This document shows, piece by piece, positions 2,700 through 19,596 of a DNA stretch of 36,798 nt. The stretch lies in the IMG/VR virus record IMGVR_UViG_3300009146_000026, positions 1 through 36,798 of that record. The stretch is one strand, 5' to 3'. The notes under the pieces are model-generated. The model had not been told where the DNA came from and did no database searches. It worked only from the letters and a program-made list of their open reading frames with translations. The position numbers were made by a program, and so were the translations under genes. The DNA is from a virus. How positions within the stretch are numbered: the first letter of the stretch is position 1; each line of letters begins with the position of its first letter.

Positions 2700-3250
2700 C
2701 AGACACCCATGCTCCGGTACATCTTGGAGACGACGAAGTCCTTCTTGACCTTGTCCTTGTTCATGCCCCGCTGGTTCATCGCGGCTGCGGTGAGGCCGAC
2801 GCCGCCGTACATGGTCCCGGCGAGTATCCCAGCACGTCGCAGCCCGGCCTTGTTGCCAAGGAGCAGCGAACGTCCACTGGCGCGGAGGCCTTCCCTCCCA
2901 TGGTGTAGCGACGCGGCCCTGGCACGAGCCGACTGCTCATTGGACATGCCAATGCCGGTTCGGTACACGTTGCGGATCGAAGGGGACATCGACGGATTGG
3001 ACATGCGAGCCCGACCGATGTCCGCTCGGTTCTCCCATGTCTGACCAACCTTGGCGTACTGCCGGGAGAGGCGAGAGTTGAACCTCTGCTCATGCTCGGC
3101 GGCGCGCAACTGCTTGGGAACCCCGCGATAGGTGTATGCGGTGCCACCGGCCAGTGCTCCACCACCAGCGCCTATCGCCAGGCCAGCATTGCGGTCGCGA
3201 CGACGCTCGTCGTTGGCGGTGGCGGCCTTGTACACCGGGATCAGGATCAT
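2699..3250 (-). CDS. Hypothetical protein with two Gly/Ala-zipper segments
   Basis: This 183-residue unknown protein begins MILIPVYKAATAND. It has two clear small-residue hydrophobic segments: GLAIGAGGGALAGGTAYTY near residue 25, preceded by ERRRDRN, and AGILAGTMYGGVGLTAAAM near residue 142, preceded by LRR. Both could form short transmembrane or membrane-inserting helices with Gly-zipper spacing. The C-terminus KVKKDFVVSKMYRSMGV shares VKKDF with the 249-residue neighbour. It shares one base with the stop of the protease gene and one with the start of the next gene. Confidence 0.72.
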   Translation of the reverse strand: MILIPVYKAATANDERRRDRNAGLAIGAGGGALAGGTAYTYRGVPKQLRAAEHEQRFNSRLSRQYAKVGQTWENRADIGRARMSNPSMSPSIRNVYRTGIGMSNEQSARARAASLHHGREGLRASGRSLLLGNKAGLRRAGILAGTMYGGVGLTAAAMNQRGMNKDKVKKDFVVSKMYRSMGV

Positions 3251-4224
3251 CAGAACCCCTCTCGCCGGGACACCTCACGTGCCCTACGCCCGGTGCCCAG
3301 GTTCTTGCCGCCGAGAGCACCCTTGCTCTTCTGGGTCGCATACAACTGCCCTGAACGGTTCGCGGCGATCCGTGCCCTGGCTCCGCTTGAGATGCCTGGG
3401 ATGGCTGCCGGATGGACTCCTGTCGCCTCTAGGGCACGAAGTGATGACACCAGACGCTTCTCGACATCCTCCACGTCGTGGCGCTTGCCTCTGCCATGGA
3501 TGCTGAAGCCGGTGCGAACACCCTTCTTGATGTCCTGCCAGGCGTCCTCGTCATGGACCTTGTAGCCGACCCACCAGCCGATGGGAGTGTCCGCTGGCAG
3601 GCCCATCTTCTCGATCTTCTCCGGGGTCACCACGAAGGACTCGATCAGGGATGAGGCGTGCAGTGGCTGGTCCTGGTCGTCACGCTTGTGCTGGTTGCCA
3701 CCCCTGCGGTTCTCCAGCACGTACTTGTAGGCCGCCTTCTCGATCTCGTCCGGGGTGATCCAGTCACCCTGCCGGTCCACGATGGGCTTGCCGTTGATCT
3801 CCACCACAGAGGCCCATCCGAACGCCTGATGCTTGTCATCGTCGGTCTTGGAGAAGGTGCCCTCCCACACCACGTCCATCTCGTCGGACTTCAGCACATG
3901 CATCCCGTCGCTGTCATAGCGGCGCAACTGGGCTGGCTTGTCCGGCTTGGCCAGAACAACCGCACCGGCGGTGGCTGCCGTGCCTGCTGCGGCCTTCCCA
4001 CGGTTGCGCCGGATCACCCGCATCAGCCGCCCACCGCCTGACCTCACCGCCGAGGCGTCCGGCATCGCCTTGGCCACTGGGGCGATCTTCGCCAGCCCGT
4101 CCTGGGAGTACATGAAGTCCCACACGTCCGCTGGCTCGACCAAGTCCCCGAACAACGTCTTGCACAGTTGCTCGAACCCCGGATCGACCTCCAGCAGGGC
4201 ATCCACCATCTGCTTCGAGTCCAC
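3250..4224 (-). CDS. Prohead protease, XkdF-like (S78-type serine protease domain)
   Basis: This 324-residue protein would cleave scaffold and capsid precursors during head maturation. The protease-like region spans about residues 115-270. It has FGWASVVEINGKPIVDRQG, then PLHASSLIESFVV with the candidate catalytic His, then GWWVGYKVHDEDAWQDIK, then TGFSIHGRG with the candidate catalytic Ser. This order matches the XkdF-type putative protease family (Peptidase_S78_2). The first 110 residues are an extra domain ending in a basic segment plus Ala/Gly run (RRNRGKAAAGTAATAGAVV) like those in neighbouring proteins. The start is GTG with AGGAGG 5 nt upstream. Lying between portal and capsid-type genes fits the assignment. 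Confidence 0.85.
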   Translation of the reverse strand: MDSKQMVDALLEVDPGFEQLCKTLFGDLVEPADVWDFMYSQDGLAKIAPVAKAMPDASAVRSGGGRLMRVIRRNRGKAAAGTAATAGAVVLAKPDKPAQLRRYDSDGMHVLKSDEMDVVWEGTFSKTDDDKHQAFGWASVVEINGKPIVDRQGDWITPDEIEKAAYKYVLENRRGGNQHKRDDQDQPLHASSLIESFVVTPEKIEKMGLPADTPIGWWVGYKVHDEDAWQDIKKGVRTGFSIHGRGKRHDVEDVEKRLVSSLRALEATGVHPAAIPGISSGARARIAANRSGQLYATQKSKGALGGKNLGTGRRAREVSRREGF

Positions 4225-4251: not shown

Positions 4252-6606
4252 CTACGAGGAACGCTTTCGCGTTCGATGGCTCGGATCGTTCTGTGCCAGC
4301 CACTGCTCCGCAAGGTCCCCGCTTGGTCCTTCCTGACGCCGCTGGGTGTTCTTGGCCCCGTAGGCCACGTCCAGCACGTCCTCGTTGCCGAAGTCCTCAA
4401 GACCAACGTCCTGCCCGGGACGCGCCACCGTCTCTGGTCCTGAGACGAACTCCTCACGGGCACGGTTCTGCGCCTTCCACCGATCCTGCATCCGCTTGTT
4501 GGCAGCCAGATGGGCCTCACGGACCCGGGGATCGGAGTTGGACGCCACCTCGTCGCGTATCCGCTGCCGCCGGGCCTCCATGAACTCGATCCGCTCCGCA
4601 GCCAGGGGGAAGCCCATCCGCCGGGCCAGTTCGGCCTGAGCGGCTGACTCCTGCTCCGGGGTCGGGTTGTGGGGGAAGGCCTCCAACTCCTTGTCGGTGA
4701 AGAACTTCGCCGCAGCAGCGCCGATTGTGTTCCTCTCCCGCTGGAACGCCTCATGCTGGTCGATCCGGACCTGGTGGAAGTCGGCCCTGTTCTTGAGGTC
4801 CTGGTACTTGTCGGCGGTGATGATCTGGGAGCCAAGGCCGATCCGCTCCGCAGGGACGCTGATCCCGGGCAGGTTGTCGTTGAGCAGGTCGACGCCCTGT
4901 GACAGCGGGTACAGCCACTCCAACTCCTCCGCCGAAGCGGCGACCATCTGCGTCCCGGAGGGAGCGGCTGCCTGAGCCCGGGCCTGGGGCTGCAGGTCCA
5001 TCTGCCATCCGGTGGCCCCGGAGGCCTTCTGCAACTCGAACAGGTCCAGCGAAGCGGCCAGTTGCCGCTCCATATGCGCGATCTCCCGCTCGGAGAACTT
5101 CTCCTTCAGGCGATGCTCGATGTCCGGCTGGGGCGGCTTGATAACCTCGATGAACTTGCCGTGGGGGTCGTAGATCGGCTTGATGTGGAGCGTCTTGTCC
5201 CTGGTGCGCATGTCGGACAGGAACGCGTCGGACAGGAAGACGTGGTCCTCTTCGGACGCGGTGCCCGCCTTCACCCGGCCCAGAGCCTTCTGGGCGAAGT
5301 CGTAGTTGCGGTCCATCGTGTAGTGGACCGCTTTCGGGTTGCTGTTGGTCAGCAGGTCGAACTCGACGCCCTCGGGCAGATCGGGGATCAGGCGGGTGAT
5401 GGTCTTGTGGACCAGTTTCCGGTCCTGCTTCTTGAGGATCAGTTTCTTGATGCCGGGACGTGGACGGGAGGGGGCGGCTCCGGTCAGCGGTGCTGGAGCG
5501 GGAGCGCCTGCCGCCGCCATCGCCCTGCCGATCCTCCTGCGGCGACGCTTGCCACGGGCGATCCTCGGGTCGATGGGACGGCTGGGACCACCACCAGCCG
5601 CCCTGGTGAACCGTCCTGAGCGCAGATCGCGGGGGTGCTCCTCCGCCTCCCATTCCATGGCCTTGGACGCTGGCTTGGACTTGGGCGCTGGCGGGTTCGC
5701 CATGAACGTCTTGTAGTCATCCTTGGTGGAGGCGTGAATGTCGATGACCTTCAATGAGAAGGCGATCTGCTTCACAGGATCGTCCGGGTCAATCGCATGC
5801 CGATCCGCCCACGGATGTTCGATCAGTGATCCGTCGCTGGCGAAGTGCACCGTGTCCGCCAACTCAAAGGTCAGGTGACTGTACTGCCCCGCTTTGGCCA
5901 TATTCGGCTCGAAGATCTGCGGACCGCTGAGGGTCAGCCCACCTGTCGTCCAGTTCCCCTCATCGGCGTGGGTGAAGTCCGTGCGCAGAATCACCACATC
6001 GTCATCGGTGTCCCCGACCATCGAGCGGCGCATCTCATCCGCCACGATGCCGATCGAGTTCCTGTCGAAGGAGTTCAGTTGCGTCTTCCAGCGCAGGTTG
6101 GCCGCCCCGACCACCAGTGACCCGGTCTTGGCGAACTCCCGGGCCTGCTCCCCGGTGATCGGGATGTACTGGGTCTGACCGACCGGATGCCCAAGTTGCC
6201 CCTCCAGGTAGTCGATGTCGTCCAGTTCCACATCTGTGGCCTGCTGCTGTGCGGCAGGTCGGGGCGGTTGGACGCGGGAGAGGGGCTTCCTGGCGACGGT
6301 TCTGGCTGGCAGCAACTTCTGGCGCGTCACAGGCGGCAGCAGACGGAGGTCTGGCGGGGCCGCAGCAGCCTCCTGGGCTGCGACGAACGCCTGGGCCTGG
6401 GTTGCCCTCACTCCGCGCCGCAAACGGCGCAGACGGCGTGCTGTGCGCTCTGAGCGGGGGTCTCCAGGAGGACCGCCTGATCCTGATGTGAAGCGACCGC
6501 TCTCATCGCGGGGATGTTCCTGGTTGAAGTGGAACAGGTCAGAGCCACGCAGCGCATCTCCGTGCAGTGCGGCTGCGGCTTTGCCGATGTCAGCGAGCGC
6601 GGTCAT
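4252..6606 (-). CDS. Large head-module protein with duplicated HPRDxxGRF module
   Basis: This 784-residue protein is unknown overall. Two copies of one module are visible. Residues 30-60 read HPRDESGRFTSG, a Gly/Pro linker, then an Arg-rich helix (RRLRRLRRG). Residues 323-360 read HPRDLRSGRFTRAAGGG, a linker, then GKRRRRRIGRAM. Each module precedes a different globular region, at about 90-290 and 385-560, neither of which I recognise. The C-terminal 200 residues are charged and probably helical. The ATG at 6606 was chosen over one 42 nt upstream because it shortens the overlap with the upstream gene to 17 nt and gives a start (MTALADIGKAA) like that of the 249-residue neighbour. A virion role is likely but unproven. 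Confidence 0.75.
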   Translation of the reverse strand: MTALADIGKAAAALHGDALRGSDLFHFNQEHPRDESGRFTSGSGGPPGDPRSERTARRLRRLRRGVRATQAQAFVAAQEAAAAPPDLRLLPPVTRQKLLPARTVARKPLSRVQPPRPAAQQQATDVELDDIDYLEGQLGHPVGQTQYIPITGEQAREFAKTGSLVVGAANLRWKTQLNSFDRNSIGIVADEMRRSMVGDTDDDVVILRTDFTHADEGNWTTGGLTLSGPQIFEPNMAKAGQYSHLTFELADTVHFASDGSLIEHPWADRHAIDPDDPVKQIAFSLKVIDIHASTKDDYKTFMANPPAPKSKPASKAMEWEAEEHPRDLRSGRFTRAAGGGPSRPIDPRIARGKRRRRRIGRAMAAAGAPAPAPLTGAAPSRPRPGIKKLILKKQDRKLVHKTITRLIPDLPEGVEFDLLTNSNPKAVHYTMDRNYDFAQKALGRVKAGTASEEDHVFLSDAFLSDMRTRDKTLHIKPIYDPHGKFIEVIKPPQPDIEHRLKEKFSEREIAHMERQLAASLDLFELQKASGATGWQMDLQPQARAQAAAPSGTQMVAASAEELEWLYPLSQGVDLLNDNLPGISVPAERIGLGSQIITADKYQDLKNRADFHQVRIDQHEAFQRERNTIGAAAAKFFTDKELEAFPHNPTPEQESAAQAELARRMGFPLAAERIEFMEARRQRIRDEVASNSDPRVREAHLAANKRMQDRWKAQNRAREEFVSGPETVARPGQDVGLEDFGNEDVLDVAYGAKNTQRRQEGPSGDLAEQWLAQNDPSHRTRKRSS

Positions 6607-7141
6607 AGCCAGACACCCGGCCACCCATGCGTTCTCTGGATGCCACATCGCGCGCCCACAACATCAGCGCCCGATCAGCCAGATCCGCCTTGACCACCTC
6701 CGCCACGGTAGGGGCCTTCATGTGGAAGGCGTACTTGCCACTAGACGCAAGCGGCACGCCGTGCACCGCGATGGCCCGATCCACCGCAAGGGGCACCGGC
6801 AGGCCGGTGGCTGTCAGGGAGATGATCAGCCGAGTGGTGTCATCGACGGCTCTGTCGTGCGTGGAGTCGGCGAGGAGTTCGCCGTACTTGCCAGCAGCCG
6901 CGCCGAGTACCGGGCGCGTTGCGCGTCCAAGAGCCTTCGCGACGGGCGTGAGATCAACCTGTTCCGCAGTCGCTTGGACAAGACCCCCATCAACCAGAGA
7001 CTGTCGTCCAAGAGGGGCCAGCGCCCCCGTGACCAGACCGTGGTATCCGAGTACACAGGTAGCCACTCCTTGTTCCATGTCGGAGTCATCGACGAGGTCC
7101 AGCATCCGCAGTGACGCCTCTGGATCGGCCCACCACCTCAT
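6590..7141 (-). CDS. Hypothetical protein between AAA+ ATPase and 784-residue protein
   Basis: This 183-residue protein is not recognised. It begins MRWWADPEASLRMLDLVDD, is mildly hydrophobic in the middle and has no obvious membrane segment, zinc site or nucleotide-binding loop. Its ATG overlaps the TGA of the AAA+ ATPase gene in an ATGA arrangement, so the two are almost certainly translationally coupled and may act together, for example as an ATPase adaptor (inference). Its end overlaps the next gene by 17 nt. Confidence 0.7.
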   Translation of the reverse strand: MRWWADPEASLRMLDLVDDSDMEQGVATCVLGYHGLVTGALAPLGRQSLVDGGLVQATAEQVDLTPVAKALGRATRPVLGAAAGKYGELLADSTHDRAVDDTTRLIISLTATGLPVPLAVDRAIAVHGVPLASSGKYAFHMKAPTVAEVVKADLADRALMLWARDVASRERMGGRVSGYDRAR

Positions 7142-8178
7142 GGGTTCACCGGACGCAGCCGTCCCTCACCCTTGTGGCCCCGGACCCTTGATGAGGACTT
7201 CACCGCACGCATCGCCTGGTCCACATCCTCAGGATGGATCAGTTCCAGACGAGCCTGCGGATCATCGGCGATCCGGCGCGCCTGGGCGACACGCACCTCC
7301 TGCATCAGGTTGCGGACATCACGGGCGTTGCCATGACCCGGGGTGTTCGCGATCTGTCTGGTCGCCTCGGTGATCTTCGCTGCTGTGCCAGGCTTGCCGA
7401 CGTACTGGCCCTCCCGCAGCATCCCCCGACCGATCTTGTCCAGGTCGGACGCGCTGTAGGAGGGGAAGTTCAGGGTCTTGGGCAGACGGGACTTCAGCCC
7501 CGGGTTGGACTTCATCAGGTCGTTCATCTCATCCGGGTATCCGGCCATGATCACCACCGTGTCGTCGCGATGGTTCTCCATGTCCTGGATCAACTGGGAG
7601 ATGGCCTCCCGCCCGTACGGGTCCTTGTACCCGGGAGTGTCGTTGACCAGCGAGTACGCCTCGTCGATGAACAGCACCCCGCCCTTGGCCTCGGCGAACT
7701 TCCTGGCGGTCTTCGGCGAGGACTGACCGAGGAACTCGCCCACCAGATCAGATCGCTTGGCCTCCACGAACTTGTCGGTGGGGGTGATGCCCAGGCCGTG
7801 GTAGGCCTTGGCCAGTTCCCGGGCGATGGTCGTCTTCCCGGTGCCTGGTGGTCCTGCGAAGACCAGGTGGTTGGTGTCCTCGGTGACCGGAAGCCCTGCC
7901 TCCTTGCGACGCTGGTTGACCTTGGCGGTGGCCAGCAGATCGTCGAACTGACCGGCGACCGCCTTCATGCCGACCATCCCGTGCACCTTGGCCTGCACCT
8001 CTGCGACCACGTTCGGGTTGGGCCGCTTCACACCCTCGTCGGGACGTACGTCAGGCCCGCCAGCCTGCGGCGGCTGATCTCCCGTGCGAGGGGTGATGAG
8101 TCCTTGCTCACCCGCTCCAGTCTTGGTCGCGCCGGTCTCGAAGAGTCGGCCTTTTCCGCCTCCTCCTTCGGTGTCCAC
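7138..8178 (-). CDS. CbbX/CfxQ-type AAA+ ATPase, probably made as a -1 frameshift extension
   Basis: This is a 346-residue reading frame if started at GTG 8178. The AAA+ core covers about residues 57-300: Walker A GPPGTGKT (109-116), Walker B GVLFIDEA with D172/E173, then MAGYPDEM and the sensor/Arg-finger region NPGLKSRLP. The order and wording match the CbbX/CfxQ branch, which includes the C-terminal ATPase of EccA in type VII secretion; these enzymes remodel protein partners. The GTG has only a GGGG stretch as a possible Shine-Dalgarno, unlike the strong sites elsewhere here. The frame overlaps the end of the 1222-residue gene by 151 nt. A CCCAAAA slip site and hairpin sit just upstream, in the 45 nt between the last in-frame stop and this GTG, so fusion to the upstream protein is the preferred reading. 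An ATPase in a head gene cluster is unusual. Confidence 0.85.
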   Translation of the reverse strand: MDTEGGGGKGRLFETGATKTGAGEQGLITPRTGDQPPQAGGPDVRPDEGVKRPNPNVVAEVQAKVHGMVGMKAVAGQFDDLLATAKVNQRRKEAGLPVTEDTNHLVFAGPPGTGKTTIARELAKAYHGLGITPTDKFVEAKRSDLVGEFLGQSSPKTARKFAEAKGGVLFIDEAYSLVNDTPGYKDPYGREAISQLIQDMENHRDDTVVIMAGYPDEMNDLMKSNPGLKSRLPKTLNFPSYSASDLDKIGRGMLREGQYVGKPGTAAKITEATRQIANTPGHGNARDVRNLMQEVRVAQARRIADDPQARLELIHPEDVDQAMRAVKSSSRVRGHKGEGRLRPVNP

Positions 8179-11100
8179 AGGTCCCCCCGGAGGACCCCCG
8201 GGACTTTTGGGCCGCCTGTGACATCACCCCGCATCTCAAACGCGTTGATGGCACGTCCGGCGTTGACCAGCGTCCACGCCTGCTGGAGTTTCATCGCCTC
8301 CATCTCGGGCTGGGGCCAGGTCTCCTTCTTCAGTTTGATCAGGTCATCGCCGTAGGTGATCTTGCGACCGGCCATCTCCTCCAACTTGGCCTTGAACCGC
8401 TCCGGGTTGGCCGCGACGTTGTCGATGTACCAGTCAGCCTTGATCGGCACGCCCTTGTGACGATCCTCATCGTTGGCGGCGGCGGAGACGATCCTGTCCA
8501 GATCCTTCAGCACACCGATCCGCTCGGACACGTCGACGGCCACCTCCGCAGCAGCACGGAAGTCCTCACCACTCTCGGTGCTGCCCAGTTTCCGGGCCAT
8601 CTCGGCCAACGGCTTGTTATTGCTCAGAACGGCGTTCAACTGGCTGCTGTTGGTGATCCGCTCCACCGGGACGCCGTTGATGGTCAGCGCCTGTGGCCGA
8701 GAGCCGGTGTGGAAGGCGTTCGGCTTCTCCCCGGTCACCGGGACGAACGGCTGGGTCACCAGTTCGCTGTCCACCACCCTCATGGCCAGGTCGGCCACGA
8801 AGGCGGCTGCCTTCTCCGGGGTGTTGTTGCCAGGGCCGAACTCGTTGCCGCCCTCGAAGTAGTCCTTCCCGGCACTGCTGGCGAGCGCGTTCTTGAACGC
8901 CAGCATCACCGACGGCTTGTCGGACAGGGCTGCGGCGATCCGCGTCGCCTTGTCCGGCTCGGTCAGGGACGCCTTCGGGTCCAACTGGGAGAAGAACCAT
9001 GTGGCAACCCGGGCGTTGTTCCCGGTCTTCACCTGATCCCAGGTCAGGTTCGTGGTGGCGTTGTCGGCGCGCTGTCCGGCGAGGGTGGTGAACACGTCCT
9101 GGAGCGCGGAGATCGACCGATCCCGCTCGACCCGGGCGCTGTTGGCCATCCCAGCCATCCGCGAAGACAGAGTGTTGCCACCAGCGCCTCCAGCACCAGG
9201 AGCGCCCGGAACCCCAGGAGCACCAGGAGTCCCAGGAGCACCCCCAGGAGCAACCCCGGGGCCTCCCGGCGGGCCTTCAGGAGGAGGGGGTGGCTGATTA
9301 GCAGCCTCGGCCTGCTCAGCCTTGTACCGCTCACCGCCGACCGCAGCCTCCTTCGGGCGTGGAGCCGACGCGTCCGTGCGGTAGAAGCCGCTTCGCACTG
9401 ATGCGGCACGGGTGCCTCCGGGACGCATGTAGCCCTCATCGGTGGCCTTGAGCCGCTGGCGCGACTTGCCCGGGTTCGGGGACTGGCCGCGAGAGTCGAG
9501 GAAGCCCCGCTCGCCCTGCTTGGTCTCGGCAAGCGGCTCGTAGTTCACCGACCTGATGAAGTAGGGGAACTGCTGCTGAAGGGTCTGCAGCGCGACCTGA
9601 TAGCCCTCGGCGTTGAGGCGCAACTTGGAGGCCTTCTCGTTGGTCGCCTGCTCTTCGAGTTCCTGGTACACCTCGTCGATGCGGCGGTTGCGACCGACCT
9701 CGGTCAGATTGCGACCGTTGCCCTCGGCGTCCACTGTCTGCGTCGCCTGCTGGTGCAGGGAGTCCATCTCCTCCTCGGTCAACTCACCGATGGATGCACG
9801 GGCGTCGGACTCCAACTGCTTGTACGCGGTCTTGTACTCCTCGCTGGTGCGCGAGCCCGCGATCTCTGCGGCACGGGAGCGCAGCCGGGCCTTCTCGCGG
9901 GAGTCGATGTCCTGGGCGTACATCCCAGAGTTCTCCACCGCGTCGAGGATCTTCAGGTAGTTGCGGTACATCGAGCGGGCCTTGTCCGAGCCGCCACGAG
10001 CGCCACGGAGGTTGGGGTCGAACTCGATGGAGTGGACCCCGGACGAGGACACCACCGTCGCCATTCGGGCTCCGTTGCCCACCGCAGCCGCGATGTCCTC
10101 ACCCGTGAGCCCGCCCTGCACCCTGGTGCGGACGTACTGGCCACCCTTCATCGAACGCTTCATGTTGGCGTAGTCGAAGGGCAGATAGGTGTCGTCCCCG
10201 ACTCCCACGGCCTGGGACACCACATCACCGTCGGCGTCGATCAGCACCCCCTGCGAGGGGAGGATGCTGCCCGCCTTCTGGGACAGTTCGGCGACCCTGC
10301 GATCCAGCGGGATGGTCTTCAGCAGATGGATCGCCGCCACGTCGGAGCGGACCCGCATGTTCAACTGATCCTCGGTCAGGGACTCCTCGTTGAGCCGGGA
10401 CTGATCAAGGTTGTGCTTCAGCGAGCCCTCCACAGCGCCACGGATCATCATCTGGTCGCCCTTGCCGCGACGGCCCACCGCGTTCAGGTCGGACTGCGCC
10501 AGCACCAGGTCGGTGACCCTCCCGGCACCGCCCTCACCGGCAACAGCGTCAACTATGTCCATCTCCTTGGAGTTCATCTGCCGCATCAACTCGATGTCGG
10601 GCTCCTTCTCGGTGCCCCGGTAGCGGTATGCGGTCTGACGAACCTTGGGATCGAGCACCTTCTCCGCAATCGGGCCGTACTCGCCCATGAACCGGGCCAT
10701 TCCGGCCATCTTGTCGTGGCCAGTGGCCTCCAGGACATCGCCTCCGGAGCGGAACCTGCTGAACAGGCGGTTCAGCATCCCCTCCTCCGGGCCACGGGGC
10801 ATCAGGGCTGATGTGAGGGCGCTGCGCTGCGTGTCCCCGAGCGCGCCGATGGCAGCCATCTGCGAGCCGCCCATCGCCCCGAGAGTGTTGAACTGGGCCA
10901 CCTTGCGGCGGACATCCTCCTTGGCACCGGCGGCGGAGTCGATCTCGATGCTCAGGATCGAGTCCTCGACCTGGAGCCCGTTCTTGCCATAGGCGGAGTC
11001 CGGCATCCCGTGGGCGGCCATGTCCAGTGGAGCCTCGATGGTCTTGATGTCCCCGTTCTGACCCTGCACCTGGATCAGCGCCACGATCTTCTTGCGCTCA

Positions 11101-11696
11101 GCCGGGGAGAACGATGCGCCGAACTCACGGAGTATCTCGTCGGCCTGCTCGTACTGTGCCTGCACCCTGGCGGCCTGCTCCTCCGTCACCCCTTGTGGCA
11201 GGCCAGTCGCCGCGTTGACCGGACGATCCTTGGCCGCACGAAGAGGAGTGGCGCGCTGCTGCATCGAGGCGTACTGCAGTGGGTTCACCTTCCGCTGCTG
11301 GTTCACGCCACGGGAGAACCGGCCCCTGCTGTCGCGCTTGTGCTTGTTCTCCTCCCACTTGGCACCACCGGGAGGAGCGAACAAGTCACCATCATCGTCC
11401 TTGCGGATCACCGACTCGACAGCGAACGCCTCGACACCGGCCAGCCACTCAGCGGCCTTGTGCACCTCGTCGTCGGGGTAGCGGCCCTGAGCCACCTCAG
11501 AGGCGTACTGGCGCAGCAGTTGCCGCTTGGCCACGGCGACCCGCTGGCCCACATAGGCCGCTGCGGACTTGTTCAGAAGTTGTGCGTTGTCCAGGGCGTC
11601 ATCGGCAAGCACGTCCAGCACGATGTCGTCGATCATGCTCTCCGCAGCCTCGGGATCGACCTCGTAGACCTTGGCGAGTGCGTCCATCACGCTCAT
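8028..11696 (-). CDS. Giant 1222-residue head-module protein with collagen-like segment
   Basis: This long protein is of unknown family. The N-terminal 110 residues are helical and acidic. Near residues 119-130 is HKRDSRGRFSRG, a relative of the HPRDxxGRF peptides in the 784-residue protein. A long charged region with predicted helices runs to about residue 780. A Pro-rich linker and collagen-like Gly-x-y stretch (PGTPGAPGVPGAPG within about residues 800-842) separate it from a second globular region of about 330 residues. Length and composition would suit a scaffold-like or internal virion protein (inference). The ATG has GGAG 7 nt upstream. The last 151 nt overlap the AAA+ ATPase frame, and the slip site near the end would swap the natural C-terminus for the ATPase in a fraction of products. 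Confidence 0.8.
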   Translation of the reverse strand: MSVMDALAKVYEVDPEAAESMIDDIVLDVLADDALDNAQLLNKSAAAYVGQRVAVAKRQLLRQYASEVAQGRYPDDEVHKAAEWLAGVEAFAVESVIRKDDDGDLFAPPGGAKWEENKHKRDSRGRFSRGVNQQRKVNPLQYASMQQRATPLRAAKDRPVNAATGLPQGVTEEQAARVQAQYEQADEILREFGASFSPAERKKIVALIQVQGQNGDIKTIEAPLDMAAHGMPDSAYGKNGLQVEDSILSIEIDSAAGAKEDVRRKVAQFNTLGAMGGSQMAAIGALGDTQRSALTSALMPRGPEEGMLNRLFSRFRSGGDVLEATGHDKMAGMARFMGEYGPIAEKVLDPKVRQTAYRYRGTEKEPDIELMRQMNSKEMDIVDAVAGEGGAGRVTDLVLAQSDLNAVGRRGKGDQMMIRGAVEGSLKHNLDQSRLNEESLTEDQLNMRVRSDVAAIHLLKTIPLDRRVAELSQKAGSILPSQGVLIDADGDVVSQAVGVGDDTYLPFDYANMKRSMKGGQYVRTRVQGGLTGEDIAAAVGNGARMATVVSSSGVHSIEFDPNLRGARGGSDKARSMYRNYLKILDAVENSGMYAQDIDSREKARLRSRAAEIAGSRTSEEYKTAYKQLESDARASIGELTEEEMDSLHQQATQTVDAEGNGRNLTEVGRNRRIDEVYQELEEQATNEKASKLRLNAEGYQVALQTLQQQFPYFIRSVNYEPLAETKQGERGFLDSRGQSPNPGKSRQRLKATDEGYMRPGGTRAASVRSGFYRTDASAPRPKEAAVGGERYKAEQAEAANQPPPPPEGPPGGPGVAPGGAPGTPGAPGVPGAPGAGGAGGNTLSSRMAGMANSARVERDRSISALQDVFTTLAGQRADNATTNLTWDQVKTGNNARVATWFFSQLDPKASLTEPDKATRIAAALSDKPSVMLAFKNALASSAGKDYFEGGNEFGPGNNTPEKAAAFVADLAMRVVDSELVTQPFVPVTGEKPNAFHTGSRPQALTINGVPVERITNSSQLNAVLSNNKPLAEMARKLGSTESGEDFRAAAEVAVDVSERIGVLKDLDRIVSAAANDEDRHKGVPIKADWYIDNVAANPERFKAKLEEMAGRKITYGDDLIKLKKETWPQPEMEAMKLQQAWTLVNAGRAINAFEMRGDVTGGPKVPGVLRGDLWTPKEEAEKADSSRPARPRLERVSKDSSPLAREISRRRLAGLTYVPTRV
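8180..8211 (-). promoter_or_regulatory. Candidate programmed -1 ribosomal frameshift site
   Basis: On the minus strand the heptamer C CCA AAA (8211-8205) sits in the zero frame of the 1222-residue gene (Gly-Pro-Lys codons) and fits the X XXY YYZ rule. After an 8-nt spacer comes a GC-rich hairpin: GGTCC (8196-8192), 7-nt loop, GGACC (8184-8180). A slip to -1 enters the AAA+ ATPase frame exactly. That frame has a TGA at 8226-8224, just upstream of the slip site, so the site lies in the only short stretch where a shift can work. Slip site, spacer and stem are all visible; function is inferred. Confidence 0.65.
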
Positions 11697-11705
11697 ATGT
11701 GTCTC

Positions 11706-14027
11706 CTAGCCCATTGACCCACGACGGTAGACGGTCTTACCGGACGCTGTGCGAACCATCGCCCCAGTCTTCACACCACCGAAGCCGGTGGGAATCCTGG
11801 GGAACTTGGGCACTCGTATCAAGGCCTTGGCCACGTCCAACTCGCGCTGCTTCACCTTGTACGGGTTGCCCAGTTTGGGGTGCGGGTTCGTCCGGTAGAA
11901 CTTCTCCCCTAAGTCCCGGTAGCCCGGATTCGCTGCCTCTTCCGGATCAGGCTGACGCGGGGGAGGACGGGTGCCACGGGCTCGGTGCTCATGCACCAGG
12001 GCCTGGCGTGCCTTCAAGCCCCTGATCTCCGCCTTGGAGCGCCGATAGACGGGCTTCGGCAGACCAGCCTTGCGCCTGCGGGCCAACTCATCCGTGACTG
12101 CGAAGTCGTGGTCAGAGGGGTCCTTGCCACCGCTCGAATGGCGAATGAAGTTCTGCATGTTGACGAGACCCTCGACGGTCCTGCGCTGGCTGATCTCCCT
12201 GGCGACCCGTGCCTGCTTGGCTTTGGCCTTGTGCGGCGCGATGTTCTTGTCCATGAAGTGCTCGATGCGCTCTGCCTTGCTCCGACCACCATGTGCGATC
12301 CGGTAGTAGTCGTCCACATCCTGAAGGGTGCGCTGCGCTCCATAGGGATACTTGTTGGTCGCCAGAGCCTGATCGGCCCGTACATCGCCCATTTTGGAGA
12401 CCATCGCCCTGGCCACGTCGATCTGGCGGGTGCGGTCACCGGACAGGTGCATCTTTCTGACCTTGGTCTTGTTGGCCTTGTCGGCAGCACGCACCTGGGC
12501 GAGCCGTGCCTGGGATCGCTGTATCGAGGCTGCGATCTTGGGATCGTCCAGTGGCCCAGTGGTTCGGTGCCTGGTGAACGCTGACCCATGACCAGGTTGC
12601 CCGATCGGGACTTCACCCTTCGCACTTTGCCTGGCCTTGCTGCGCCATCTGGTCTCAGATGTGCGGTTGACGTTCTGGACGTGCTTGACCTGCTTGAGTG
12701 GCACGTTCCCCGGGTACATGTACTCCTCGGAGCCGCTGTGAATGTTGCGGGGAGGACGCCCGGCGCTGTCGTCGATGTGCATCACCCGACCGACGCGCTT
12801 ACCCGACCGCTTGTTCTGAGCGATCAGTTGCTCAGCCCGCTCCGGGGAGTTGAAGGCGCGGATGTAGTGGGGCTTCTCGCCATGGGTTGCGAAGCGCATG
12901 CCGTGGTCAAAGCCCGGGGTGGTGTACACCCCGGTGCCTCCGCTGCCTGGAGATGGCTTGAGGTGCCCGGCGCGCTTGATCCCCTTCCAGCCCTGGAGGC
13001 TGGTGCCGTGGTACAGCGCCTTCTTGACCTTCATGGCTCGGGCGCTGCGCTCATCGGCCTTGGACTCCGAACGCTGGATGCGGGCGAAGTTCAGCGAGCC
13101 CAGCGATCCCACACCAAGGGCACCAATACCCACCGTGTTGGACATCCCGGTTGCCGTTGGCGCGACCCCGCTCACCCGCTTCAGCGCCTTGACGTTGCGC
13201 AGCCGCTTGGCCTTCAGGGCCACATTGGCCAGGCGAGGTGCCTGCAGTCCAAGGGCTGCTGCACCCAGTCCGGCGGAGGCCAGGGAGTAGGTGCTCTGCT
13301 TCTTCTTGCGCGCCACCAGTTGGCGCTGCTCATGCTGGGCGAGGGTGTTGATGGCAGCGTCACCGGAGGCCAACTTGCTTACGCTGCTCTTCTTCACCCG
13401 GTAGGTGCCACGCTCGGTGGAGTAGTCGTACTTGCCCTCGGTGCTGCGACGCACCGCACGACGTGCGAATGGGGATGCCGCCACCGCACCACCTGCTGCG
13501 CCAAGAGCAGTGCTGGTGCCTATCGCGGCGAGACGCAACTTCCCCTTGGCAGCCCTACGTGCCAGAGATGATCCTGCGATGCCGCCCAACGTGGAGCCTG
13601 CGCCCACCGTGGCCAACTCAGCGGTCCTGGCCCGGTTCGACTGGTTCTTCTTGCCCTTGACGCTGGGCAGGCCCACCGCAGTGCGATCCACCGCCTCCTC
13701 CAGCACGTCCTCCTTCAGATCGGGTCGCTCGATCTTCTTCGGACGAGGTGCCAACAGGTTCTTGGCCCCCACTGCGGCAAGAGGCACACCAGCGGCTGCG
13801 ATACCGCGCGTGGACAGCATCCCGCCCACGTACCTGGCATGCCTCGGCTTGATCGTGCGTCCGCGTGCGACCTGCTTGGCAGCGTCCAGGGTGTTCTTCA
13901 CACCGGTGCTTCGGGACAGATGCTCCTGTGCCGCTGCCGCACCGCCGATCATCGAGCCGCCCACCGCAAGGTTGGCAGCGGCGATCCGCCTCCTGCGGCG
14001 CTCCTCCTGATCGCTCAACTCGGGCAT
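11706..14027 (-). CDS. Head-module protein with embedded ADP-ribosyltransferase-like domain
   Basis: This is a 773-residue basic protein. Residues 1-330 carry repeated Arg/Lys clusters next to Gly/Ala hydrophobic stretches (for example GAGSTLGGIAGSSLARRA). Residues about 335-445 look like an ADP-ribosyltransferase of the H-Y-E type: LYHGTS with His340, then GTGVYTT with Tyr368, then GSEEYMYPGNVP with Glu434/Glu435. This order and the EExxxPGNVP ending are typical of toxin-type ART folds, which move ADP-ribose from NAD+ to a target. The C-terminal 320 residues are highly basic and unrecognised. ATG 14027 is preferred over 14042 because it shortens overlap with the upstream gene to 13 nt. Placement among head genes recalls T4 Alt, an ART carried in the virion and injected. 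Activity is not proven. Confidence 0.78.
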   Translation of the reverse strand: MPELSDQEERRRRRIAAANLAVGGSMIGGAAAAQEHLSRSTGVKNTLDAAKQVARGRTIKPRHARYVGGMLSTRGIAAAGVPLAAVGAKNLLAPRPKKIERPDLKEDVLEEAVDRTAVGLPSVKGKKNQSNRARTAELATVGAGSTLGGIAGSSLARRAAKGKLRLAAIGTSTALGAAGGAVAASPFARRAVRRSTEGKYDYSTERGTYRVKKSSVSKLASGDAAINTLAQHEQRQLVARKKKQSTYSLASAGLGAAALGLQAPRLANVALKAKRLRNVKALKRVSGVAPTATGMSNTVGIGALGVGSLGSLNFARIQRSESKADERSARAMKVKKALYHGTSLQGWKGIKRAGHLKPSPGSGGTGVYTTPGFDHGMRFATHGEKPHYIRAFNSPERAEQLIAQNKRSGKRVGRVMHIDDSAGRPPRNIHSGSEEYMYPGNVPLKQVKHVQNVNRTSETRWRSKARQSAKGEVPIGQPGHGSAFTRHRTTGPLDDPKIAASIQRSQARLAQVRAADKANKTKVRKMHLSGDRTRQIDVARAMVSKMGDVRADQALATNKYPYGAQRTLQDVDDYYRIAHGGRSKAERIEHFMDKNIAPHKAKAKQARVAREISQRRTVEGLVNMQNFIRHSSGGKDPSDHDFAVTDELARRRKAGLPKPVYRRSKAEIRGLKARQALVHEHRARGTRPPPRQPDPEEAANPGYRDLGEKFYRTNPHPKLGNPYKVKQRELDVAKALIRVPKFPRIPTGFGGVKTGAMVRTASGKTVYRRGSMG

Positions 14028-14278
14028 TGCGCCGCCCACCACATGCTCAGGTCCTCGACCTTCTTCTGACCCCGGTCACCGAGCAGGGTGAGCGTCACGT
14101 ACACCGACGCGCTGAGCATCGAGGACAGCACGCACTCGTCGTTGGCACCACGTGAGTGGCACTCCCTGGAGTACAGGTCCATCAGCAGCGTCGCGTCCCG
14201 GGGACGATCGTCGTAGAGGCAGCCGAGCACCCCTAGCACAGTGGTCACGGACTCGCCCTGCACCACCTGTCCGCACAT
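14015..14278 (-). CDS. Small hypothetical protein with four cysteines
   Basis: This 87-residue protein begins MCGQVVQGESVTTV and contains four Cys (MCG, GCLYD, RECHSRG, DECVLSS). The spacing does not match a zinc ribbon I recognise. The middle is predicted helical and mildly hydrophobic. ATG 14278 was chosen over an upstream ATG at 14332 because it lies one base after the preceding stop, with no long overlap. It overlaps the ART-like gene by 13 nt, which suggests coupled translation; an accessory or chaperone role for that protein is possible but only inferred. Confidence 0.6.
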   Translation of the reverse strand: MCGQVVQGESVTTVLGVLGCLYDDRPRDATLLMDLYSRECHSRGANDECVLSSMLSASVYVTLTLLGDRGQKKVEDLSMWWAAQCPS

Positions 14279-14279
14279 G

Positions 14280-15083
14280 TCAGTCCTTCCAGTACATCTC
14301 GCGGCGCTTGGTCCGACGGATGCCCATGCCACGCTCCACCCGGTTGCGGGCCTTCAGGTAGTCCTTTGGGTTGCCGGTGTCGTTGATGTGACCGGAGAAC
14401 AATGGCGCTTGGCTACCCAGCCTGCGAGTGGCTCGCACGTCAGCACGGGCCTCCTCACCCATCAGGTACTTCTGATTCGCCCTGGTGCCTACCACCCGGT
14501 ACTTCTGCTCAGCCTTCAGAGCGCGCTTGCCACGTGAATCAGCCCCGATGATCCGGGACAGCACTTTCGGGTTCTGATCCATCATCTTGCTCTGGACCGC
14601 CAGCGTTCTGGAGAGCCCGGAGCGACGGTTGACGTTGGCATGCTCCAGTTCATGGGCATTGATGAAGGCCTTACGGGTGTGGAACTTCAGCCCGGTCTGC
14701 TCCCGGCCAGCCCCCAGTTTTCGCATGGCGGGATTGGATTTGCTCGACATGAGGGACACATGCGCCTTACCACCATGGGCCACTGGGCGGATCACATGCG
14801 GTCCAGCCTTGCTTTCCAGACCTGTGGTGGCGTTGTGGCGACCTACGCGTCCCACCACATTGGAAGCCACTCGCGAGTTCTTGTACTCACCGGCAGTCCA
14901 TGCGGCGGTCATGTTCCGAGCCTCGTTCACACCTGCGAGGTGCTTCTGACCGAAGCGACCGCGCTTCACCGAACGCAGCACCTTGGCTTTGGGCAGTGCT
15001 GTGATCGGAGTCCAGCGCCCATTGATGTAGGACTTCTCCACCTTCCGCTGCCACCGTTCGATGGCGTACGTCTCACGGCTCAT
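14280..15083 (-). CDS. Putative zinc metalloprotease (HExxH) downstream of portal
   Basis: This 267-residue basic protein has the zincin motif H144-E-L-E-H148 in AHELEHANVN. A second conserved-looking site lies about 62 residues later, GEEARADVRATRRLG with E210/E211 and D215. HExxH followed by ExxAD is the arrangement of gluzincin-type metalloproteases such as the M48 group, in which two His and one Glu bind zinc and the first Glu is catalytic. The rest is Lys/Arg-rich and not recognised. The start is the ATG that overlaps the portal TGA (ATGA). Since a serine-type prohead protease is also present, this may process other virion proteins or act in the host after injection. Function is inferred from motif only. 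Confidence 0.7.
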   Translation of the reverse strand: MSRETYAIERWQRKVEKSYINGRWTPITALPKAKVLRSVKRGRFGQKHLAGVNEARNMTAAWTAGEYKNSRVASNVVGRVGRHNATTGLESKAGPHVIRPVAHGGKAHVSLMSSKSNPAMRKLGAGREQTGLKFHTRKAFINAHELEHANVNRRSGLSRTLAVQSKMMDQNPKVLSRIIGADSRGKRALKAEQKYRVVGTRANQKYLMGEEARADVRATRRLGSQAPLFSGHINDTGNPKDYLKARNRVERGMGIRRTKRREMYWKD

Positions 15084-16633
15084 TGCGGCGGACCTCCCGG
15101 AGGCGGCTGTGACGGTGGCTGCCCGCCCGGAGCCGGACCACCCGGCTGCGCCGTGCCGGGCTGGGCAGCCATCGGGTTCATCGCCATGGCCATCTGGTTG
15201 CGAGCGGTGAGGTACTCCAGGTTGGTCTGGGCGAACTGGGTGGCCTCGGAGCGCATCTGCATCATGCGGCGCTTCTCCACCTGGTCGTCGTCCAACTTGG
15301 GCAGACGTGCGGCATCCCTGACGAAGTTCTCCAACTCGCCGTCGGGGAACCATGTGACGCCGGTGCCAGCCAGGGCGCTCATGAACTGCGCCAACTGGGC
15401 GATGTCCGGTGAGTCCACATCGTTGGGGACGATCTTGGGCAGCGCCTCGGGCTTCCAGCCGTTGGCCCTGAAGAGGCGTGGCAGGGCCGACCTGTTCAAC
15501 TCATCTGCGATGGACTGGCTGATGCTGTTGAGCGAGGTGCGGAAGATGCCCGTCTTGTCGGTGTGCAACGAGTAGGAGCCAACGGACTGATGGCCGACCA
15601 TGATGAAGTCCGCCAGGACGGTCTGGAGTATGCGCTCTTCATAGCGCCGGATGATCTGATCGGTGTTGAATGCGCGTCCACCACCACCACCGAGCAACTC
15701 GAAGGTGTAGAGCGGCTGCTTGGAATCCTGGTCGTACGCGATGGGGAAGACAACGCCTTCCTGCTCATTGCGCCGTACTCCCTTCACCATCTTCTTGAAG
15801 GCCTCTACAGTCTTGGCCTGCTCGGAGCCGGGCTTCGCCTTGAGGTACTCGGCGGGCACCTTCACAACTGGCATGCCCGCAAGATCACGTTCAACACCAA
15901 CAGCCTCGAACTCCTCCAGCCGCTTCTTCATGTACCAGGGGCGGTACATGGTGCGCAGCATGGACATGCCCTCTGGATTCCCCTTGTGATGGCGGTAGCG
16001 GAAGAGCAGGCTCCGTGATCTGGGCAGCGTGGTGGTCTGGTAGCGGGGTGGGGCCAACTGGATCATCGCCAACGTCTCACCAGAGTCGTCGAACACCCAC
16101 CGCAATAGCGTTTCCTGCGCCCTGATGGGCATCTTGCGCCATCCCACCAGTCCATCGGAGTGTTTGGACGCCTGCTGCGGGTTGCGAGCCCAGATGCCCC
16201 TTCTCTGCTTGTACACGACCTCGTGCCATGACCAGCCGTAGACGAGGCATGACAACGCCTCCGAGATGAAGTCATCCCAGGTGTGCTCCATGTCATCCAT
16301 GCAGTCCTCTACGAAGCGGGCCGCATTGCCATCGTCCTTGCTCTTGCCTGCTGGCTCCACCCGCCACTCCTGATTGCGCAGGAGGCGGTCGATGCTGAAG
16401 AGCAGCGCGCCCACGAGCGGCTCATTCTCGCTCATCTCCTTGAAGATCTGGACGGCCTTGCGCCCACGCAGTTGGGGAAGGAACTCCTCATCGAGGTAGC
16501 CGGACGCGCGCTTGAGGCCGGTGACACCCAGTTCCCTGAACTCACTGAGACGCTCGACCTCGGCCAGCATCTGCTGATCGACCCCTGATGAGTCCTCAGG
16601 GCCGGTCTGGCGACGCTCCTCGATGATGCTCAT
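15080..16633 (-). CDS. Portal protein, DUF935/Mu gp29-like
   Basis: This 517-residue protein would form the dodecameric ring at the head vertex through which DNA enters and leaves. Typical features are an early ENEPLVGALLFSIDRLL helix, the LRNQEWRVEPAG strand, then YGWSWHEVVYKQR at about residue 135, a hallmark of DUF935/gp29-type portals, and later VGHQSVGSYSLHTDK. The C-terminus is a Pro/Gly/Gln tail (AAQPGTAQPGGPAPGG and onward). Length fits the family (about 450-550). It follows the 476-residue gene and the terminase, the usual order, and its ATG overlaps the upstream stop. Confidence 0.9.
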   Translation of the reverse strand: MSIIEERRQTGPEDSSGVDQQMLAEVERLSEFRELGVTGLKRASGYLDEEFLPQLRGRKAVQIFKEMSENEPLVGALLFSIDRLLRNQEWRVEPAGKSKDDGNAARFVEDCMDDMEHTWDDFISEALSCLVYGWSWHEVVYKQRRGIWARNPQQASKHSDGLVGWRKMPIRAQETLLRWVFDDSGETLAMIQLAPPRYQTTTLPRSRSLLFRYRHHKGNPEGMSMLRTMYRPWYMKKRLEEFEAVGVERDLAGMPVVKVPAEYLKAKPGSEQAKTVEAFKKMVKGVRRNEQEGVVFPIAYDQDSKQPLYTFELLGGGGGRAFNTDQIIRRYEERILQTVLADFIMVGHQSVGSYSLHTDKTGIFRTSLNSISQSIADELNRSALPRLFRANGWKPEALPKIVPNDVDSPDIAQLAQFMSALAGTGVTWFPDGELENFVRDAARLPKLDDDQVEKRRMMQMRSEATQFAQTNLEYLTARNQMAMAMNPMAAQPGTAQPGGPAPGGQPPSQPPPGGPPQ

Positions 16634-18069: not shown

Positions 18070-19596
18070 TTAGAGCCAGAACACGGTCGTTTCTGGCTCC
18101 TCCTTGATGGTGACCACCCCGTCCTGCGATGACTCGTAGAAGGGCGTGTCCGGTTCTGGGCGCAACGACTCCAGCGACTTGGGCTTGAAGTCGGTCATCC
18201 CGACGGTGTTCGGAGGGGCTGGTGGGGCCTGACGCACAACAGCCCGATGGCAGATGGCCATGGCGGCCACATCATCGGGCAGGTGGTACTTGCGGCCCAG
18301 TCCAGTCGAGTACAAGTCATCGACTGTGGCCGCCTTATGTGCCATATGCAGCGGAGTGTTGCGAGGTAGCACATACATCCCGCGCTCCACGGCGGCCACG
18401 TACTCGGTGAGCAGCAGCACCCGATCCCGGCCCACCATGACGACCTTCACGGTGCGCTCGTCGATCATGTCGTTGACCACGTTGCCAATGCCCGTGCCGT
18501 CATGGGCGCTGACTGCTGAGTAGTCGCGGGTGATCCTGTTGAACGCCTCGATCATCTCCGGCCAGGGCTTGCGGTTCATCCGGCGCACGTACACCACGCG
18601 ATACGGGGTCACATCGGTGCGCACAACGGTCATCACCGTCATGTCGCGCTCCTTGGCCCAGTCAGCGCCTGCCGCATAGGTGGCTGTCACTTCCGGCTTC
18701 GCGTAGACCCACTCGTCATCATGGCCCTTGTGGGTCTCATCGACTGCCGTCATGTCCACGCATGCCTGATCCAACTTGGTCAGGTCGAAGGCACGGGCGT
18801 CACCAGATGGTTCGCCCAGTTCGTACTCGACCCGGAACATCTCGGCTGGGACGGACTGCCGTTTGCGGTCGATGAAGTCCTCGTCCATCCACCCGTCTGG
18901 GTTGGTGGGCGTCTTCAGGACTTCGAGGAAGCACCATGTCCGCACTGGCTGACCCTTGAGCAGGGCCTCATCGCGGACTGACTGGAAGGTGCCCACGGGG
19001 TTCTGCCAGGTGGATGAGGCGACCACCATCTCAGGGACCACATGGCCCCTGGCGTTGGGCTTCTCCATCGCCTGGCCCATGGCCGCGTCGTAGATGGGGC
19101 GTTCCATCTCGTCGATCTCATCGAGCAGGGTCATGTGGGGGTGGGGACCACGCACAGTGCGCTGTGATGCCGCAAGGGGTCGCACCCAGTTATTGGAGTC
19201 GAAGAGGAGTTGAGTCTTGATCTGGCTCTTGATGGCATACCGAGGGGCGTTCGGTGATGCCAGGAGGGACTCCACATGCTCGTGGACGTTGTTGGACTGG
19301 GCCATCGACCCACCCAGCAGGGTGACGTTGATCTCCAGCGCGGCTGCCTTGGTAAGAGCGAGCAGGGCGAGCATCAGGGACTTGCCGGTACCACGACTCC
19401 CATACCAGAGCACCCAGTTGGTCGAGTTCCCGAAGTAGCCCTCGCAGAAGGCGTCGAATGGTGCGTCGTGGTCTGCGCACACCTTCATTCTGGGGATCGA
19501 GATGCCCCATGTGGTCTTCACGAACCACCAGAGTTCCTCGGGATTCTCCGGGGGCCTGGTGATCTGGATGCGCCGCTCTGGTGCGTCGATGCTCAT
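18070..19596 (-). CDS. terL: Terminase large subunit (packaging ATPase/nuclease)
   Basis: This 508-residue protein would drive DNA into the prohead and cut it. The N-terminal ATPase has Walker A GSRGTGKS (residues 66-73) and Walker B MTLLDEIDE with D159/E160. The C-terminal RNase H-like nuclease starts at AAGADWAKERD, with D312 as first metal ligand, followed by SAHDGTGIGN with a second Asp. Length and domain order are normal. Its ATG overlaps the stop of the small upstream gene. The usual small-terminase partner is not beside it; a candidate lies on the other strand at 35859-36317. Confidence 0.93.
   Translation of the reverse strand: MSIDAPERRIQITRPPENPEELWWFVKTTWGISIPRMKVCADHDAPFDAFCEGYFGNSTNWVLWYGSRGTGKSLMLALLALTKAAALEINVTLLGGSMAQSNNVHEHVESLLASPNAPRYAIKSQIKTQLLFDSNNWVRPLAASQRTVRGPHPHMTLLDEIDEMERPIYDAAMGQAMEKPNARGHVVPEMVVASSTWQNPVGTFQSVRDEALLKGQPVRTWCFLEVLKTPTNPDGWMDEDFIDRKRQSVPAEMFRVEYELGEPSGDARAFDLTKLDQACVDMTAVDETHKGHDDEWVYAKPEVTATYAAGADWAKERDMTVMTVVRTDVTPYRVVYVRRMNRKPWPEMIEAFNRITRDYSAVSAHDGTGIGNVVNDMIDERTVKVVMVGRDRVLLLTEYVAAVERGMYVLPRNTPLHMAHKAATVDDLYSTGLGRKYHLPDDVAAMAICHRAVVRQAPPAPPNTVGMTDFKPKSLESLRPEPDTPFYESSQDGVVTIKEEPETTVFWL

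What the first reader, a model, noticed from the sequence alone, without database searches (positions are those of the whole stretch)
8028..8226. Textbook -1 frameshift cassette fusing a 1222-residue protein to an AAA+ ATPase
Seen: zero-frame C CCA AAA heptamer, 8-nt spacer, GC-rich hairpin, and an ATPase frame in the -1 phase that opens at a TGA (8226-8224) only 13 nt before the slip site. The ATPase frame has no convincing ribosome site, while most genes here have a strong one. Known: this layout drives -1 frameshifting in phage tail-chaperone genes. Inferred: a minor product carries the ATPase at the end of a giant head-module protein. I know of no described phage head protein made this way.
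Basis: partly seen in the sequence, partly recalled or inferred. Interest (0 to 1): 0.85.

Follow-up and report, generated by a model that had tools for sequence, protein, structure and literature searches.

The report
Frameshift adds ATPase to phage protein
In a family of uncultivated tailed phages, a conserved ribosomal slip signal joins an AAA+ chaperone-type ATPase to some copies of a very large head-region protein; a second branch has the two fused in one gene but keeps the slip signal beside a stop codon, as if both the plain and the ATPase-bearing protein are needed.

Summary
Window 8211-8205 (minus strand) is C_CCA_AAA in the frame of the 1222-aa ORF. A hairpin follows after 7 nt, and the -1 frame reads into a CbbX/SpoVK/EccA-type AAA+ ATPase. 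IMG/VR searches gave 82 non-redundant homologues of the large protein. All 20 with the ATPase in the -1 frame carry CCCAAAA in the correct phase near the ORF end, although it occurs at 0 of 24,205 zero-frame positions elsewhere in these genes. A hairpin and an upstream Shine-Dalgarno-like element recur with it. In 11 of 18 loci checked, the ATPase frame has no start codon for at least 52 codons. Five relatives encode protein and ATPase in one in-frame ORF; four of these keep the heptamer as CCCAAAAGNTGA, so a -1 slip ends translation at once, as in dnaX. Five others keep the site but reach a non-ATPase extension. Both forms therefore appear to be selected. Frameshifting of phage capsid genes is known; I found no description of an AAA+ ATPase attached this way, or of both polarities in one family. 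Nothing was tested by experiment.

The parts
8028..11696 (-). zero-frame ORF: 1222-aa head-region protein; 1164 residues up to the Lys of the slip site, then a 58-residue tail made only in the short form
   Evidence: homologues in 82 non-redundant loci, window included; no Pfam, PHROG, NCBIfam or PDB sequence match
8222..8230 (-). Shine-Dalgarno-like stretch GGGGTGATG upstream of the slip site; comparable element in most relatives
   Evidence: in the window only top 11% of in-frame windows; across 33 loci median top 1.8%, strongest 11-16 nt upstream of the heptamer
8224..8226 (-). TGA that closes the -1 frame just upstream of the slip site
   Evidence: in the first seven loci the -1 frame opens 3-27 nt before the heptamer; farther in some others
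8205..8211 (-). slippery heptamer C_CCA_AAA in zero-frame phase, followed by G
8175..8201 (-). predicted hairpin; main 8-bp stem 8197-8190 with 8186-8179, 7 nt after the heptamer
   Evidence: -18.4 kcal/mol; top 0.8% of windows of the gene, median top 2.3% over 32 loci
8028..8204 (-). dual-coding stretch: zero-frame C-terminal tail and -1-frame linker are both read
   Evidence: substitutions fewer and spread more evenly over codon positions than upstream
7138..8211 (-). -1 frame from the slip site: 357 codons, linker then CbbX/SpoVK/EccA-type AAA+ ATPase, stop at 7138-7140
7252..7995 (-). AAA+ ATPase region by the NCBIfam spore_V_K match (Walker A GPPGTGKT about 7854-7831; Walker B FIDEAY)
   Evidence: TIGR02881 E 6e-66 and TIGR03922 E 1e-68, both below the equivalog cut-offs; CbbX 3zuh E 4e-49, EccA1 9lur E 6e-48; invariant residues in A7
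8176..8178 (-). rival start: GTG of the 346-aa ATPase ORF, preceded by GGGGGGA
   Evidence: counterpart at this position only in the nearest relative
15080..16633 (-). context: portal protein (Mu-type)
   Evidence: PF06074 E 6e-34; phrog_113 E 2e-82
18070..19596 (-). context: terminase large subunit
   Evidence: phrog_9 E 3e-9 and phrog_2 E 6e-9
3250..4224 (-). context: XkdF-like head maturation protease
   Evidence: PF14550 E 4e-20

Best explanation
This is a programmed -1 ribosomal frameshift near the 3' end of a large head-region gene. Most ribosomes read through C_CCA_AAA and stop at 8028, giving the 1222-aa protein. A fraction, slowed by the hairpin and by pairing of an upstream SD-like stretch with 16S rRNA, slip back one base and continue into the ATPase frame, giving a protein of 1164 + 355 = 1519 residues that carries an AAA+ ATPase on its C-terminus. 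Supported by sequence conservation: the site, its phase, the hairpin, the SD-like element, the absence of an independent ATPase start in most relatives, and the retention of a short-form signal in relatives whose genes are fused in frame. Inferred: that the two forms co-assemble, so that a limited dose of a CbbX/SpoVK-type remodelling ATPase is tethered to the prohead through the shared 1164 residues and acts there during head assembly, packaging, or on internal proteins. My confidence is about 0.95 for the frameshift and about 0.55 for tethering at a controlled dose.
For: Geometry in the window. In the window and the first six relatives the ATPase is in the -1 frame with CCCAAAAG in phase. 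In the wider set, 20 of 20 non-redundant -1-ATPase loci carry it near the end of the ORF. CCCAAAA occurs at 0 of 24,205 zero-frame positions elsewhere in these genes, and the codons used (xxC CCA AAA) are rare ones in the GC-rich members. Hairpins: mean z -1.5 over 23 loci, combined Z -7.3 in 30-nt windows; median top 2.3% of same-gene windows over 32 loci. SD-like element: median top 1.8%, Fisher p 3.5e-30, not corrected for relatedness. In 11 of 18 ATPase loci there is no ATG/GTG/TTG in the -1 frame for at least 52 codons after the heptamer. Five relatives are in-frame fusions; in four of them CCCAAAAGNTGA makes a slip terminate after one further codon, with a hairpin behind it. Portal, protease and, in relatives, scaffold and major head protein flank the gene. 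ATPase motifs are invariant.
Against: No protein or reporter data exist, and the phages are known only from IMG/VR contigs. In the window and its nearest relative a GTG with GGGGGGA upstream could start a free ATPase, and most relatives have Met codons at the start of the AAA core, though with weak SD matches. The individual hairpins differ in sequence, and a few (L051, L056, L117) are weak or absent. The statistics treat related sequences as independent. The fold and function of the large protein are unknown, so the tethering step is unproven.
Confidence: 0.85

Rival explanations
1. Two separate genes with a long overlap: the ATPase starts on its own at GTG 8178 by coupling or reinitiation, and the heptamer is incidental.
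For: GTG 8178 with GGGGGGA upstream is conserved between the window and its nearest relative; the ORF list starts the ATPase there.
Against: L006, L011, L013, L029, L032, L034, L035, L039, L041, L046 and L098 have no ATG/GTG/TTG for 52 or more codons. The heptamer is invariant where the surrounding protein sequence is not. Relatives with in-frame fusion exist.
Confidence: 0.05
2. Both occur: a frameshift fusion plus a free ATPase from internal initiation at the start of the AAA core.
For: An ATG 38-41 codons before Walker A is common in relatives.
Against: It codes the conserved M-x-G-M of the domain, SD matches are weak, and L008/L009 lack it.
Confidence: 0.1
3. The frame change is made by RNA polymerase slippage rather than by the ribosome.
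For: The site contains short homopolymer runs.
Against: The runs are only C3 and A4; efficient bacterial slippage was reported at runs of nine A or T (PMC5009743). A tandem-slip codon phase, hairpin and SD-like element are signs of ribosomal slippage.
Confidence: 0.02
4. The frame change is a sequencing or assembly error; the real gene is one in-frame ORF.
For: In-frame fusions do exist in relatives.
Against: The same frame relation recurs in 20 non-redundant loci, and the zero-frame tail beyond the site is conserved as protein.
Confidence: 0.01

Closest known systems
E. coli dnaX programmed -1 frameshift (tau/gamma)
   Same: SD-like element upstream, slippery heptamer and hairpin downstream (PMC3711429). 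In four in-frame relatives the slip leads to a nearby stop and a short form, as in dnaX.
   Different: dnaX uses A_AAA_AAG and serves DNA polymerase. In the window the polarity is opposite: the slip makes the long form.
Phage tail assembly chaperones (lambda gpG/gpGT type)
   Same: A -1 slip near the 3' end of a phage morphogenesis gene gives a longer, less abundant product (PMC5009743).
   Different: The gene lies between portal and head protease, not beside the tape measure gene; the protein is about 1,200 aa; the extension is an AAA+ ATPase.
Frameshifted phage capsid proteins (T3/T7 gene 10, Lactobacillus phage A2, Listeria A118/A500/PSA)
   Same: A head gene yields two products by frameshifting (PMC5009743); CCCAAAA is reported for the major head protein gene of phage BH1, which resembles that of A2 (PMC6950654).
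   Different: There the zero-frame product is a coat protein and the extension is often an Ig-like domain. Here a different protein is extended by an ATPase, and relatives encode a separate major head protein.
CbbX / SpoVK / EccA AAA+ ATPases
   Same: The ATPase matches all three families and solved CbbX and EccA1 structures; SpoVK is described as a dedicated chaperone (PMC10659427).
   Different: Scores lie below each equivalog cut-off; it is attached to a phage head-region protein.
Retroviral and totiviral Gag-Pol frameshifting
   Same: An enzyme is joined to a fraction of a structural protein, which helps to package it (PMC5009743).
   Different: Analogy only; packaging of the ATPase is not shown.

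Membership tests
bacterial programmed -1 frameshift signal (dnaX type) | X_XXY_YYZ heptamer in zero-frame phase | tested here: met
   window 8211-8205; 20 of 20 -1-ATPase loci
bacterial programmed -1 frameshift signal (dnaX type) | stable hairpin a few nt downstream | tested here: met
   exceptions L051, L056, L117
bacterial programmed -1 frameshift signal (dnaX type) | SD-like stimulator upstream | tested here: met
   family-wide; weaker in the window itself (top 11%)
bacterial programmed -1 frameshift signal (dnaX type) | signal conserved beyond protein constraint | tested here: met
bacterial programmed -1 frameshift signal (dnaX type) | trans-frame product detected | not testable with these tools
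   needs a reporter or mass spectrometry
tail assembly chaperone G/GT | gene beside the major tail and tape measure genes | tested here: not met
   lies between portal and head protease
frameshifted major capsid protein (T7 10B, A2) | zero-frame product is the major capsid protein | tested here: not met
   relatives carry a separate major head protein, phrog_1005; no capsid match for the large protein
CbbX/SpoVK/EccA AAA+ clade | sequence match and AAA lid | tested here: met
   PF00004, PF17866
CbbX/SpoVK/EccA AAA+ clade | intact Walker A, Walker B and arginine finger | tested here: met
   invariant in A7; identity of the finger residue is my reading
CbbX, SpoVK or EccA proper (equivalog) | NCBIfam equivalog cut-off | tested here: not met
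   205-232 bits against cut-offs of 423-467
MuF head morphogenesis protein | sequence match of the large protein | tested here: not met
   no match; in L016 a separate ORF matching head morphogenesis families follows the large protein

The most novel reading that the evidence does not exclude
A phage uses Gag-Pol-like recoding to build a small fixed number of AAA+ remodelling ATPases into its prohead or virion, anchored by a large head-region protein. The family holds the short-to-long ratio by two opposite recoding designs: a slip that adds the ATPase, or an in-frame fusion with a slip that removes it. A third group has other domains in place of the ATPase at the same site.
Probability: 0.35. 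Interest if true: 0.9.

Novelty: new variant of a known kind. Interest (0 to 1): 0.78.

Why it matters
It gives a strong case, from sequence conservation, of an AAA+ ATPase dosed onto a phage head-region protein by recoding. The same pair of products appears to be made by two opposite recoding routes within one protein family, which argues that the two-product ratio itself is selected. Gene callers would annotate the ATPase as a separate gene with a false start, so the fusion would be missed. It also offers an entry to an uncultivated phage family whose large head-region protein has no relative found among 50,697 phage records.

Tried and rejected
Adler phage AAA ATPase as a model: it is annotated with its own start, 4 nt inside the previous gene, with no frameshift. 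Isolated Arthrobacter and Microbacterium phages with similar portals (Laroye, Ottawa, ValentiniPuff) list no AAA ATPase in the head region shown. The genome-contig scan gave one weak, truncated hit. Fold of the large protein: an AlphaFold model at pLDDT 80 for residues 1-789 found no convincing solved structure; a separate model of residues 436-605 resembles dCMP deaminase and RadC only weakly (E >= 0.06), so I make no claim from it. One BFVD entry, A0A6J5RLS4, is a homologue (40% identity). The AAA ATPase of cluster O mycobacteriophages is outside the head genes. Searches of papers for frameshifted phage head proteins with an AAA+ domain found none, but the library holds open-licence papers only. 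A shared helical extension between L014 and L051 was suspected by eye and not tested (one search failed); L049 against L051 gave no match.

Full report
WHAT IS THERE. On the minus strand the 1222-aa ORF (8028-11696) reads ...GGC CCA AAA GTC..., that is C_CCA_AAA at 8211-8205. The -1 frame is closed by TGA at 8226-8224 and then open to 7138. After a slip the protein reads GPK-SP. A hairpin whose main 8-bp stem starts 7 nt after the heptamer is predicted. The -1 frame codes a CbbX/SpoVK/EccA-like AAA+ ATPase. The window is an IMG/VR virus record of 36,798 bases with terminase, portal and an XkdF-like protease around the pair, so this is the head module. In relatives the scaffold and major head protein follow further downstream, so the large protein is not the major capsid protein.

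RELATIVES. The ATPase alone found one close relative; the portal alignment found 17 loci, and an alignment of large proteins 79. In the window and the first six relatives with both genes the ATPase was in the -1 frame, with CCCAAAAG in phase; over the larger set the zero-frame stop lies 102-216 nt after the heptamer. Of 82 non-redundant large proteins, 20 have the ATPase in the -1 frame and all 20 have CCCAAAA in phase near the end of the ORF; 5 have the ATPase in frame; 7 have a heptamer but no ATPase; 39 have neither; 11 are truncated. In the set no locus without the site had an ATPase match anywhere in the stretch held.

CHANCE. In the 23 loci of the first non-redundant set the heptamer was absent from all 24,205 zero-frame positions upstream of the last 300 nt, while six XXXAAAZ heptamers of other kinds occurred. 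Pro-Lys is kept in an otherwise variable stretch, and with particular codons: CCA is 2-24% of Pro codons and AAA 1-45% of Lys codons, except in the AT-richer L006 (61% and 49%); L014 has GGA AAA instead. The product of codon fractions (10^-63.7) treats relatives as independent and should be read as an order of magnitude only. Hairpin energy just downstream lies at a median of the top 2.3% of windows in the same genes. An SD-like element peaks 11-16 nt upstream. The window is typical for the hairpin and only moderate for the SD-like element.

NO SEPARATE START. Of 18 ATPase loci, 11 have no ATG, GTG or TTG in the -1 frame for 52 or more codons after the heptamer. GTG 8178 has a counterpart at the same position only in the nearest relative. 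Met codons at the start of the AAA core are common, but SD matches are weak and L008/L009 lack them, so a free ATPase is not excluded.

BOTH POLARITIES. L183, L165, L153, L117 and L106 encode the large protein and the ATPase in one ORF. L183, L165 and L153 carry CCCAAAAGNTGA 72-73 residues before Walker A with a GC hairpin behind it, so a -1 slip gives one more residue and stops. L106 has the same arrangement much further upstream (442 residues before Walker A). L117 is weaker: the -1 stop is 14 codons away and there is no hairpin. In the tree these fusions fall in a different part of the family from the -1 group (quick method, long branches). Five members close to the -1 group (L014, L049, L050, L051, L056) keep the site, in L014 as GGGAAAA with a perfect hairpin, but the -1 frame gives other extensions, 10-244 residues beyond the zero-frame stop; these have no clear Pfam or PHROG match. 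L194 and L211 have an isolated heptamer inside the gene, which I did not follow.

MECHANISM. Shown by sequence: signal, phase, conservation, dual coding, natural in-frame fusions. Inferred: ribosomal slipping at some efficiency, and a mixed population of short and ATPase-bearing proteins that share 1164 residues. The likeliest purpose is to tether a limited dose of remodelling ATPase to the prohead. SpoVK is described as a dedicated chaperone within a distinct AAA+ clade (PMC10659427), which suits a role in assembly. Whether the ATPase stays in the virion is open.

COMPARISON. The signal works like dnaX (PMC3711429). I found no description of an AAA+ ATPase attached like this, within an open-licence library. 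Hence: new variant of a known kind.

LIMITS. No experiment; related sequences inflate the statistics; hosts unknown; the large protein has no assigned fold or function.

Noticed in passing
window 4252-7141 (minus strand): Two overlapping ORFs (183 aa and 798 aa) match parts of what is one ORF of about 750-850 aa in L006 and L039 (L024 and L040 match the first part); about 280 residues between them are missing here and the frame changes. Deletion, split gene or assembly fault; not resolved.
   Followed up: partly
L006, L011, L024, L034, L035, L039, L046, L029, L041 and others, -1 frame product: A short motif G-x-LVPT-G/S occurs in the linker after the slip site and, in some loci, at the C-terminus of the ATPase. 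Possibly a protease site or binding motif; in the linker it overlaps the zero-frame Ser-Arg-Arg-Val, so part of it is dual coding.
   Followed up: partly
window large protein near residues 110-125, and ORF 4252-6648: A repeated R-D-x-x-G-R-F type motif (KRDSRGRF, HPRDESGRF, HPRDLRSGRF) in two head-module proteins.
   Followed up: no
window 11706-14042 (minus strand): 778-aa protein with a segment YHGTSLQGWKGIKRAGHL...GVYTTPGFDHGMRFA that looks by eye like an ADP-ribosyltransferase fold; only a weak PHROG match (phrog_13493, E 0.004).
   Followed up: no
window 643-1392, 1392-2699, 11706-14042, 16630-18060 (minus strand): Several head-module proteins are rich in glycine/alanine hydrophobic stretches, as in membrane-inserting or ejected virion proteins.
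   Followed up: no
window 14280-15353 (minus strand): The listed 357-aa ORF overlaps the portal gene by 274 nt; its real start is probably further in, at MSRETYAIERW.
   Followed up: no
window 1152-1241 (plus strand): ARAGORN call of a tRNA with a four-base anticodon, opposite a likely coding ORF; no Rfam match, so probably spurious.
   Followed up: no
L194 about residue 974 and L211 about residue 667 of the large-protein ORF: In-phase CCCAAAA with a strong hairpin but no ATPase, inside a branch that otherwise lacks the site; possible independent recoding sites.
   Followed up: no
window large protein residues 436-605: Most conserved domain of the large protein; weak fold resemblance to dCMP deaminases and RadC.
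   Followed up: partly
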